Part shown: in pieces, positions 26,255 through 28,715 of the stretch
How the letters are laid out: the number at the start of each line of letters is the position of its first letter
Numbering within the stretch: position 1 is the first letter of the stretch
Source of the DNA: Haloprofundus salilacus
Lineage (GTDB): Archaea; Halobacteriota; Halobacteria; Halobacteriales; Haloferacaceae
Length of the DNA stretch: 64,000 nt
NCBI RefSeq assembly: GCF_020150815.1
Contig: NZ_CP083723.1
Coordinates: 3,038,001-3,102,000, forward strand
Direction of reading: 5' to 3'
Notes under the pieces: generated by a model
Seen by the model: only the letters and a program-made list of their open reading frames with translations
Told to the model about the DNA's origin: nothing
Database searches by the model: none
Position numbers and translations under genes: made by a program

Positions 26255-26324
26255 CTAACTCTCACAAAAGGTTCCAGTAGCGGTGCTACACCCTCTTGTG
26301 ATTCTGCTTCAAGAAGTGAAAGAA

Positions 26325-26397
26325 CGGACCCGACGGGATTTGAACCCGCGACATCTTGGTCCGGAACCAAGCACTCTGTCCACTGAGCTACGGGCCC
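26325..26397 (-). tRNA. tRNA-Arg (anticodon CCG)
   Basis: A 73-base cloverleaf on the minus strand. The acceptor GGGCCCG pairs with CGGGTCC with discriminator G. The D arm contains AGCTCAGTGGACAGAG, the anticodon arm is CTTGG-TTCCGGA-CCAAG with anticodon CCG, and the T arm contains GCGGGTTCAAATCCCG. No intron. Its 5' end is 38 bases from the end of tnpB. Confidence 0.97.
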
Positions 26398-26420
26398 TCT
26401 ATCCAAGCTACACGATAACT

Positions 26421-26430
26421 GGCTATAACC
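26421..26430 (-). promoter_or_regulatory. TATA box of tRNA-Arg
   Basis: On the minus strand GGTTATAGCC at 26430-26421, centred about 28 bases before the tRNA 5' end. It lies directly beside the right end of the insertion element and appears intact. Confidence 0.5.
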
Positions 26431-26434
26431 GTTG

Positions 26435-27736
26435 TCAATGACCCACGACTTCAGTCGTGGGCTTGTCAGTGGACTCACCTTCTACCTCCGTAACGGAGTA
26501 GGCGTAGAAATCGCCGTTTAGGTTCAGCGTCCCTGACGCTAGCGCACACTGACAGGGTGCGCCTCCACTCGAAGACTTCTGCCCCGAGTGGAGTCTCTTG
26601 AGAAGTTTGCGAGCGATGTTCTTGCTCGCGTTATAGTCCGCGTTCAGTTCGTACTCGCACTTCTGGCACACGAACTGATGCTTCGACCGCCTGTTGTTCT
26701 CATGGGTAAACCCGCACGCAGAACACCGCTGACTCGTATATTCTGGACTTACCTGCTTGACCTCGATGCCAAACATCGCGGCTTTGTATTCGACGTACCG
26801 GGACAGGCGTCGGAACGCCCACGCATGGAATCGCTTTGCACTAGCCATCCGATTGCGAATATCGGTCAAGTTCTCGAACACGACGTGGGTACAGTCGTGG
26901 GCACGCGCTTCTTCGAGAATCTGATTGGAGGCGCGGTGCAACTCATCCTGTATCCAACGGTGTTCACGGTCTTGCATCGACTGAATCGACAGGTGTGCCG
27001 ACCGTGTACCTGTCTGTTGCATTGACCCACGAGTCTTCTCGAACTCACGACGCCGATGGTTCATCTCGTCCGCGTTCCCGATGAATGCACCAGTCGAAGT
27101 CACGGCAAGCGATCCGTCCACGTTCAGGTCAACGCCAAGGACTGTTCTGTGCTTGGCATCGGAAAAAGAAGTCGTGGGTGATTCTTGCTCGTCACTTTCG
27201 ATTCGGCGCATTCGTGCGTGGAGGTAGAACGACTCAGTGGCGCGGTCGTACTGTAACGTGGACATACGGAATTCGTAGCCTTCGTTCAGCAGGTACTCGC
27301 CAATCGGTGTTCCCTCTGGATTGTCGGGAATCACGTAGTCGCACTCGACGCGACCGTTCACGGTTGAGAGCGAAACGTGGTCGCGATGGAACGTCGCAGA
27401 GCGTTTGTCGTAAACGACGCTCCATGCCGAGAAGTGTGGTTGACTCGTGTTATCGGTTTTCTTGAGACGAGCGACACCGCTTTTTGTGGCCTCAATAGCG
27501 CGTCGAATCCCTTTCTGCACGAGGTTTGCGGTCAACTCCGTCTCTGAACGTAATCGCTCGTAGAGGGCTTTCTCGGCTTTCTGTTTCGAGGTGACGCAGT
27601 AGTCGTTCGGGTGTCTCCATGCCCACTCTGCGGTTGTGTTCGCACAGTGGAGAAACTGGTCTTTGGTCTGATGGAGATCGTCGCACCGCTCGTCAGGAAC
27701 GTCAAGTTTGACCTTGACAGTGCGAATTACCTCCAT
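26435..27736 (-). CDS. tnpB: IS200/IS605-family TnpB (RNA-guided nuclease, OrfB)
   Basis: A 433-residue TnpB. The RuvC-like catalytic residues are present: Asp203 in LGVDLNVDG, Glu288 in VVFENLTDIRN, and Asp367 in NADYNASKNIAR. The zinc finger cysteines are Cys338, Cys341 (CSACG) and Cys357, Cys360 (CQKC). There is no adjacent tnpA, so the element cannot move by itself. The ATG at 27736 has TTTATAAATA about 28 bases upstream. The 3' end of the gene runs into a perfect hairpin, as expected for the right end and guide RNA scaffold. Because the catalytic residues are intact, it may still be an active nuclease. Confidence 0.93.
   Translation of the reverse strand: MEVIRTVKVKLDVPDERCDDLHQTKDQFLHCANTTAEWAWRHPNDYCVTSKQKAEKALYERLRSETELTANLVQKGIRRAIEATKSGVARLKKTDNTSQPHFSAWSVVYDKRSATFHRDHVSLSTVNGRVECDYVIPDNPEGTPIGEYLLNEGYEFRMSTLQYDRATESFYLHARMRRIESDEQESPTTSFSDAKHRTVLGVDLNVDGSLAVTSTGAFIGNADEMNHRRREFEKTRGSMQQTGTRSAHLSIQSMQDREHRWIQDELHRASNQILEEARAHDCTHVVFENLTDIRNRMASAKRFHAWAFRRLSRYVEYKAAMFGIEVKQVSPEYTSQRCSACGFTHENNRRSKHQFVCQKCEYELNADYNASKNIARKLLKRLHSGQKSSSGGAPCQCALASGTLNLNGDFYAYSVTEVEGESTDKPTTEVVGH
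26442..26461 (-). ncRNA. Right-end hairpin / putative guide RNA (omega/reRNA) scaffold of TnpB
   Basis: CCCACGACT (26442-26450) and AGTCGTGGG (26453-26461) form a 9-base-pair hairpin with a 2-base loop that overlaps the last tnpB codons. In IS605-type elements the guide RNA covers the tnpB 3' end and ends in the flanking DNA, which serves as guide. Here the flank reads ACAACGG then TTATAGCC on the minus strand, which is the tRNA-Arg promoter. RNA boundaries cannot be seen from the sequence. Confidence 0.5.
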
Positions 27737-27840
27737 CGTTAGTTCACATATTACACGAATTATTTATAAAGATTGATATTGACGTAGGGGAACTCGGCTC
27801 GCTATCGCCCGTGGGATTTGTAGATAATAGTCGGATTCCT

Positions 27841-27860
27841 CCAACGGCTAAAACCGTGGG
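27841..27860 (-). mobile_element. Solo right-end-like hairpin of an IS605-type element
   Basis: On the minus strand AAGCCCACGG-TTTTAG-CCGTTGGAGG resembles the 3'-end hairpins of other haloarchaeal TnpB elements (7-base-pair stem with one mismatch). It lies about 105 bases upstream of the tnpB start and in the same orientation, so it is probably a leftover of an older element. The gap 27737-28124 otherwise holds the tnpB promoter (27759-27769) and, between 27870 and 28020, unassignable sequence that may be IS debris. Confidence 0.35.
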
Positions 27861-28124
27861 CTTCCTCCTTGTATCCGTATGACCGTACACTTCGGTCGGC
27901 GACGCCGCATCCGCGCTCAACGTATTGACGACAGAATAGACCGCTTCCACGTCCCTCGCATGAACCACACGGCGGCTATCGCGCCCAGAACCTGTCCAAC
28001 GCCCAGCCCGTCTCCTCAAACCTGGTGACGAACGAGGGATGGAGACGGCGAAAATATAGAGAACTGACGAAGACGAGAGAGACGAAGAAAGTACGAAAGA
28101 GACGTGAACTGCCGAGTCGCCGAG

Positions 28125-28715
28125 TTACGGCGCGCTGCCGGTCTCGATGGTGAAGTCCGCGCGCGGGTAGGCGACGCAGGTGAGCGTGTAGCCCTCGTCA
28201 AGTTCGCCGTCGTCGAGCATCTGCTGGTTGTCGTGGACGACGTAGTCCTCAGAGTTGCCGCCGGAGGTGATCTGCCCCGCGCAGGAGACGCACTGCCCCT
28301 GTCGGCAGGCGTACGGGAGGTCCCAGCCTTCCTCTTCGCCGGATTCGAGGACGGTCTGGTTGTTCGGAATCTCGACGGTCTCGCCCTCCTTGACGAACTC
28401 CACCTCGAAGTACTCGACTTCGTCCTCGGGGATGTCGGCGGGGCTGGAGCTCTCCTCTTCGGCCTCGCCCTCTTCGAGTTCGCCTTCCTCGCCCGCGGCC
28501 GCGCCGCCGACGGCGACGGCGCCGCCGCCGCCGATAGAACGGTTCATCGGTTCGGGGAAGTCGGTCTCGGGGACCGTCGACGCGCGCTGATCGAGCACTT
28601 CCTGAGAGATGTCGGCGGTGGACGTCCACCCCGTCCCCTTCGAGAAGTGCATCGCGACGGCCAGCGCCGTCAGCGCCGCGCCCAGTCCAACCGCCACTGG
28701 GTCGATAAGAGCCAT
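28125..28715 (-). CDS. Membrane-anchored plant-type [2Fe-2S] ferredoxin
   Basis: A 196-residue protein. An N-terminal hydrophobic helix (about residues 5-22, DPVAVGLGAALTALAVAM) is followed by a Gly/Ala and Glu-rich linker (about 62-95) and a C-terminal ferredoxin domain. Cluster ligands are CRQGQCVSC (C-x4-C-x2-C) and the distal Cys in YTLTCVAYP. It probably passes electrons at the membrane surface. The acidic linker would act as a flexible tether. A TATA-like TTGTAAAC lies about 25 bases upstream of the ATG. No partner oxidoreductase is adjacent. Confidence 0.9.
   Translation of the reverse strand: MALIDPVAVGLGAALTALAVAMHFSKGTGWTSTADISQEVLDQRASTVPETDFPEPMNRSIGGGGAVAVGGAAAGEEGELEEGEAEEESSSPADIPEDEVEYFEVEFVKEGETVEIPNNQTVLESGEEEGWDLPYACRQGQCVSCAGQITSGGNSEDYVVHDNQQMLDDGELDEGYTLTCVAYPRADFTIETGSAP

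What the first reader, a model, noticed from the sequence alone, without database searches (positions are those of the whole stretch)
26398..27736. Catalytically intact TnpB whose natural guide would match the tRNA-Arg promoter
TnpB keeps all RuvC and zinc residues and a perfect right-end hairpin (26442-26461). The DNA next to the right end, which in IS605-type systems becomes the guide, is the TATA region of tRNA-Arg (26421-26430). The element stopped about 38 bases before the tRNA. Without tnpA, persistence might reflect guide-dependent cleavage of insertion-free alleles, or a side effect on the tRNA promoter.
Basis: partly seen in the sequence, partly recalled or inferred. Interest (0 to 1): 0.6.

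Follow-up and report, generated by a model that had tools for sequence, protein, structure and literature searches.

The report
TnpB element beside a tRNA-Arg promoter
A small haloarchaeal jumping gene that encodes an apparently intact RNA-guided DNA cutter sits just upstream of an arginine tRNA gene, and its built-in guide would match the same spot in relatives that lack it; this is how its family normally works, but the same spot was hit independently in a second lineage.

Summary
Window 26434-27878 (minus strand) is a complete tnpA-less IS200/IS605 (IS1341-type) element of a family with over 50 haloarchaeal copies. Its TnpB (433 aa) keeps the RuvC triad (D203/E288/D367) and zinc cysteines (C338/C341/C357/C360). 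The right end overlaps a predicted omegaRNA with covarying helices, a pseudoknot and the right-end hairpin. The 36 nt between that end and tRNA-Arg(CCG) are the natural guide and carry the tRNA BRE/TATA. The family inserts 3' of TCAC (37 of 43 copies). A second, independent insertion of the same family lies at the same promoter position in Halomicroarcula sp. SYNS111, whose sister genome has the clean empty site. Not shown: that the guide RNA is made or that it directs cleavage. Against strong present-day retention: this copy's left flank now reads TCAT and its left hairpin is decayed. The tRNA core promoter is unchanged, so a large effect on tRNA expression is unlikely. Verdict: a real, canonical TnpB element; a new member of a known kind in an unusually informative location.

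The parts
26434..27878 (-). complete tnpA-less IS200/IS605 (IS1341-type) element; left end at 27878, right end at 26434
   Evidence: ends set by similarity to >50 copies, by same-genus empty sites and by a clean occupied/empty pair for a related copy
26435..27736 (-). tnpB, 433 aa, intact RNA-guided endonuclease ORF
   Evidence: RuvC D203, E288, D367; zinc C338, C341, C357, C360; branch dN/dS about 0.12
27762..27770 (-). likely TATA box of tnpB (TTTATAAAT), about 30 nt upstream of the ATG, suggesting a near-leaderless mRNA
   Evidence: sequence; inference
27841..27860 (-). left-end hairpin, imperfect (one mismatch, one wobble); 29 of 43 copies have a perfect one
27879..27882 (-). left-flank target/TAM position, reads TCAT; family consensus TCAC
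   Evidence: 37 of 43 copies TCAC; empty sites TCAC/GCAC
26434..26593 (-). predicted omegaRNA scaffold overlapping the tnpB 3' end
   Evidence: 27 both-side-changed cells against 6.5 in shuffles, 95% of cells paired against 30-44% when slid; same architecture as described for Halobacterium omegaRNAs
26563..26593 (-). omegaRNA helix 1 (CTCCACTCG/CGAGTGGAG) with compensatory changes
26542..26562 (-). omegaRNA helix 2; loop half of the pseudoknot at 26548-26554
26464..26470 (-). pseudoknot partner (ACTGACA), position of the transposon-encoded motif
   Evidence: describes the same pseudoknot in H. salinarum
26442..26461 (-). right-end hairpin, perfect 8-bp stem, TGAA loop
26398..26433 (-). natural guide region AACGGTTATAGCCAGTTATCGTGTAGCTTGGATAGA (36 nt to the tRNA 5' end); the first ~16-20 nt would be the guide proper
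   Evidence: guide position by analogy with ISDra2 (PMC8612924)
26423..26428 (-). TATA box of tRNA-Arg (TTATAG), inside the guide target
   Evidence: conserved in the four same-genus empty sites
26325..26397 (-). tRNA-Arg (anticodon CCG)

Best explanation
An intact tnpA-less IS200/IS605 element of a widespread haloarchaeal family inserted 3' of a TCAC tetranucleotide just upstream of the BRE/TATA of tRNA-Arg(CCG). Shown by sequence: exact ends, insertion target (predicted TAM), intact nuclease, conserved structured right-end RNA, and empty orthologous sites that carry TAM plus matching target. Inferred: transcription of tnpB runs through the right end into the tRNA-Arg promoter region; TnpB binds the resulting omegaRNA, whose guide is the first ~16-20 nt beyond the right end; the complex cuts insertion-free alleles (TCAC + AACGGTTATAGCC...), and repair from an occupied chromosome copy converts them. 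The occupied allele is spared because the target is then preceded by TGAC instead of TCAC. The tRNA keeps its own core promoter. Transposition itself needs a TnpA supplied in trans.
For: Family placement and intact residues. TCAC immediately 5' of 37 of 43 left ends. Four same-genus empty sites rejoining at the right-end base, G002 with TCAC and a 25-nt exact match. Clean occupied/empty pair SYNS111 / G292 with no target duplication. Two nearly identical copies in SYNS111 (L042 and L068) show that tnpA-less copies still move. omegaRNA helices covary and the pseudoknot is kept, matching the described Halobacterium omegaRNA layout. Branch dN/dS about 0.12 for the window copy. Mechanism shown in ISDra2 (PMC8612924) and as a gene drive on plasmids (PMC11870625).
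Against: No RNA or cleavage data for this copy. Left flank reads TCAT and the left hairpin is imperfect, so this copy may no longer excise, and self-retention would act on a weakened TAM. No intact target remains in its own genome apart from its own right junction (TGAC), so any present activity would have to be on excised or incoming DNA. The TAM is inferred from the insertion target, not measured.
Confidence: 0.8

Rival explanations
1. The element is a neutral passenger at this site: TnpB and guide are intact only because the insertion is recent, and nothing guide-dependent keeps it there (compatible with the family placement, but denies present function).
For: Absent from the four other genomes of the genus. 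Left-end decay and TCAT suggest it no longer moves. The purifying selection measured may all predate the insertion.
Against: ORF, right-end hairpin and omegaRNA are intact while the left end, which TnpB does not need, has decayed; but a single copy gives no statistical weight to this contrast.
Confidence: 0.4
2. The site is a real hot spot: the conserved TTCACAAC-GTTA at the tRNA-Arg promoter is a preferred landing site or a homing target, hit at least twice.
For: Window and SYNS111 insertions are at the same base relative to the promoter, from different branches of the family tree. The motif is kept at tRNA-Arg in 17 of 20 insertion-free genomes of the SYNS111 genus. Chance that one of 56 other copies lands on the same site is roughly 0.002 (all TCAC) to 0.016 (intergenic only).
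Against: Only 2 of 392 genomes in the order sample show it. None of the other copies examined lies within 100 bp of a tRNA. The coincidence was noticed after the fact.
Confidence: 0.3
3. The insertion changes tRNA-Arg expression, by replacing upstream DNA or by co-directional read-through from tnpB.
For: tnpB and tRNA-Arg are co-directional and about 36 nt apart. The sequence upstream of the BRE is replaced.
Against: The BRE/TATA block and the 36-nt spacing are unchanged between occupied and empty alleles.
Confidence: 0.12

Closest known systems
ISDra2 TnpB/reRNA of Deinococcus radiodurans (PMC8612924, PMC10097598)
   Same: RuvC triad, CCCC zinc finger, right-end RNA overlapping the tnpB 3' end, guide from the flank, TAM equal to the insertion target at the left end
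   Different: No tnpA in the element; TAM predicted as TCAC rather than TTGAT; archaeal; activity not measured
Haloarchaeal IS1341-type TnpB elements and their sotRNAs/omegaRNAs (Halobacterium salinarum, PMC12558985; Haloquadratum and Natronomonas, PMC3119063)
   Same: tnpA-less tnpB, near-terminal palindromes, omegaRNA with pseudoknot between second hairpin loop and a downstream motif plus right-end hairpin, many diverse copies
   Different: No Rfam sotRNA model matched this copy even at E up to 10, so its RNA is divergent in sequence; inserted at a tRNA promoter
IS200/605 TnpB gene drive on plasmids (PMC11870625)
   Same: Guide records the insertion site, so insertion-free copies would be cut
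   Different: Shown there experimentally for plasmids; here only inferred, for a chromosomal site

Membership tests
IS200/IS605 family, IS1341-type (tnpB only) | near-terminal hairpins at both ends, no target duplication, insertion 3' of a short fixed target | tested here: met
   TCAC target, no duplication in the occupied/empty pair
IS200/IS605 family, IS1341-type (tnpB only) | tnpB without linked tnpA | tested here: met
TnpB RNA-guided endonuclease | TnpB protein family match above curated cut-off | tested here: met
   NF040570 189.5 bits against cut-off 100; PF07282 82.4 bits against 26.3
TnpB RNA-guided endonuclease | RuvC D-E-D triad and CCCC zinc finger | tested here: met
TnpB RNA-guided endonuclease | structured right-end omegaRNA overlapping the tnpB 3' end | tested here: met
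   covariation and pseudoknot; expression not tested
TnpB RNA-guided endonuclease | guide-dependent cleavage next to the TAM | not testable with these tools
   needs biochemistry; a compatible target exists in G002
TnpB-derived nuclease-dead repressors (TldR-like; recalled from general knowledge) | loss of RuvC catalytic residues | tested here: not met
   D203, E288, D367 all present
Rfam haloarchaeal sotRNA families (RF02656, RF02657) | covariance-model match | tested here: not met
   no match at gathering score or at E up to 10 in 26300-28200

The most novel reading that the evidence does not exclude
The tRNA-Arg(CCG) promoter motif TTCACAAC-GTTA is a natural homing site for this TnpB family: a guide taken from a conserved tRNA promoter matches insertion-free alleles across species, so TnpB can drive the insertion through polyploid, mating haloarchaea, and tRNA 5' maturation by RNase P trims the read-through transcript to give the omegaRNA a defined 36-nt guide tail.
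Probability: 0.1. Interest if true: 0.65.

Novelty: new member of a known kind. Interest (0 to 1): 0.3.

Why it matters
The locus gives a natural test of TnpB-guided retention in archaea: exact element ends, a defined insertion target, a natural guide, and a same-genus genome whose empty allele matches the guide perfectly. A second independent insertion at the same promoter in another family supplies a replicate. If the guide were shown to cut the empty allele, it would extend the TnpB gene-drive idea from plasmids to chromosomal loci.

Tried and rejected
AlphaFold2 model of TnpB (24-sequence alignment) was poor (mean pLDDT 35) and was not used or searched. Vertical inheritance of one insertion shared by the window and SYNS111 was rejected: the SYNS111 copy groups with another copy in its own genome at 0.25% distance, and sister genomes of both are empty. 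A second target for the natural guide in the own genome was sought; the nearest with an intact TCAC has two mismatches inside the seed. Rfam sotRNA models did not match. The origin of the extra left-flank DNA (27883-28124) was sought in the own genome and in plasmids without result.

Full report
What is there. The window comes from a haloarchaeal chromosome (archaeal rRNA operon; G000:C1, 3.73 Mb genome). On the minus strand lies tnpB (26435-27736, 433 aa), which matches NCBIfam guided_TnpB (189.5 bits, cut-off 100) and the Pfam Cas12f1-like TNB domain. Solved Cas12f and TnpB proteins are the closest structures by sequence. The residues D203, E288 and D367 and the cysteines 338, 341, 357 and 360 are invariant or nearly so among relatives. 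They line up by position with ISDra2 D191/E278/D361 and C331/C334/C351/C354 (PMC10097598; offsets from the match). No residue that is invariant in the family differs in this copy. Changes private to this branch are mostly synonymous (55 synonymous, 24 nonsynonymous; dN/dS about 0.12), although the branch may largely predate the insertion.

Ends. Fifty-six loci in other haloarchaea encode close relatives. DNA similarity stops at 26434 on the right and near 27872 on the left. At the left end, 37 of 43 copies have TCAC exactly 10 nt before the conserved GGAGGAAG block. The element is therefore 26434-27878, and the window's own left flank reads TCAT. Right ends are CTGAC (window TTGAC).

Empty sites. 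All four other genomes of the genus lack the element. Their tRNA-Arg upstream region rejoins the window exactly at the right end: G002 reads TCAC followed by 25 nt identical to the window's right flank; G001 and G003 read TCAC with one mismatch at guide position 4; G004 reads GCAC. A cleaner pair comes from Halomicroarcula sp. SYNS111 (L042), which carries a relative at the same place, and its congener G292 (L180). The empty allele is ...CCCGGGTTCAC|AACCGTTAAGAGG and the occupied allele is ...CCCGGGTTCAC|AGATGTGCAA...CTGAC|AACCGTTAAGAGG, which fixes the ends, the target and the lack of target duplication.

Independence. L042 is nearly identical to another copy in its own genome (L068) and far from the window copy in the tree, so two separate insertions hit the same promoter position. 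The target and core promoter (TTCACAAC-GTTA, with small variations) are kept in 17 of 20 insertion-free genomes of the SYNS111 genus. In a sample of 392 genomes only the window genome and G321, which by its coordinates is SYNS111, carry a right end at this position next to tRNA-Arg. None of the other copies examined has a tRNA within 100 bp. A rough chance estimate is 0.002 to 0.016, suggestive but post hoc.

The guide RNA. The right 160 nt of the element folds into helix 1, helix 2 whose loop pairs with a downstream ACTGACA motif (pseudoknot), and the right-end hairpin. On 44 sequences, 95% of pair cells are paired (30-44% when the partner is slid), and 27 cells show both-side changes against 6.5 in shuffles (RNAalifold agrees on most helices). 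Some compensatory changes alter the protein sequence (CAC to CAT on one side with AGT to GAT on the other; read), which argues for selection on RNA pairing. One helix that I proposed (columns 147-161) pairs poorly in the family (75%) and should be discounted. The layout is that reported for Halobacterium omegaRNAs (PMC12558985). Rfam's models do not match it. The flank that would become the guide is the 36 nt between 26434 and the tRNA; it holds the tRNA's BRE/TATA.

Mechanism. By analogy with ISDra2 (PMC8612924), TnpB guided by this RNA would cut alleles reading TCAC-AACGGTTATAGCC..., that is, the insertion-free allele, and spare its own right junction, which reads TGAC. A gene-drive effect of this kind has been shown on plasmids (PMC11870625). 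In the own genome no other good target exists, so activity would be directed at excised or incoming empty alleles. Two points argue against strong present-day self-retention: the left flank is TCAT, and the left hairpin is imperfect. The element has no tnpA; two Y1 transposase genes are elsewhere, one interrupted by a stop. The tRNA core promoter and its spacing are unchanged, so a marked promoter effect is unlikely. Because tnpB and the tRNA are co-directional, read-through followed by RNase P cleavage at the tRNA 5' end could define the guide tail; this is inference.

Verdict. The element is a canonical member of a known kind; its placement makes it a convenient natural test case and leaves open whether the tRNA-Arg promoter is a preferred site. 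The confidences given for rivals are not exclusive of the best explanation: the neutral-passenger and hot-spot readings concern present function and site choice, not what the element is.

Noticed in passing
L101, L046, L052, L054, L065 (left ends): A short (~57 bp) insert with two hairpins interrupts the left-end palindrome at the same point in five elements from different genomes and genera, resembling the small mobile repeats reported to target IS605 palindromes in Haloquadratum (PMC3119063; sequences).
   Followed up: partly
L005/L006 (G000:C2:38210-38596): Internally deleted copy of the same element in the same genome, both ends intact and a TCAC left flank.
   Followed up: partly
window 27883-28124: About 240 bp between the ferredoxin gene and the element have no counterpart in the four same-genus genomes (intergenic there ~75 bp) and no match in the own genome or plasmids.
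   Followed up: partly
L003 (G000:C2:153320-154701): A more distant TnpB (46% identity) shares the TCAC target and CCCACGAC/GTCGTGGG hairpins, and lies about 1.3 kb from the only uninterrupted tnpA gene found in the genome, a possible source of transposase in trans.
   Followed up: partly
G000 whole genome: 24 TnpB-like matches but only two tnpA genes, one with a stop codon.
   Followed up: no
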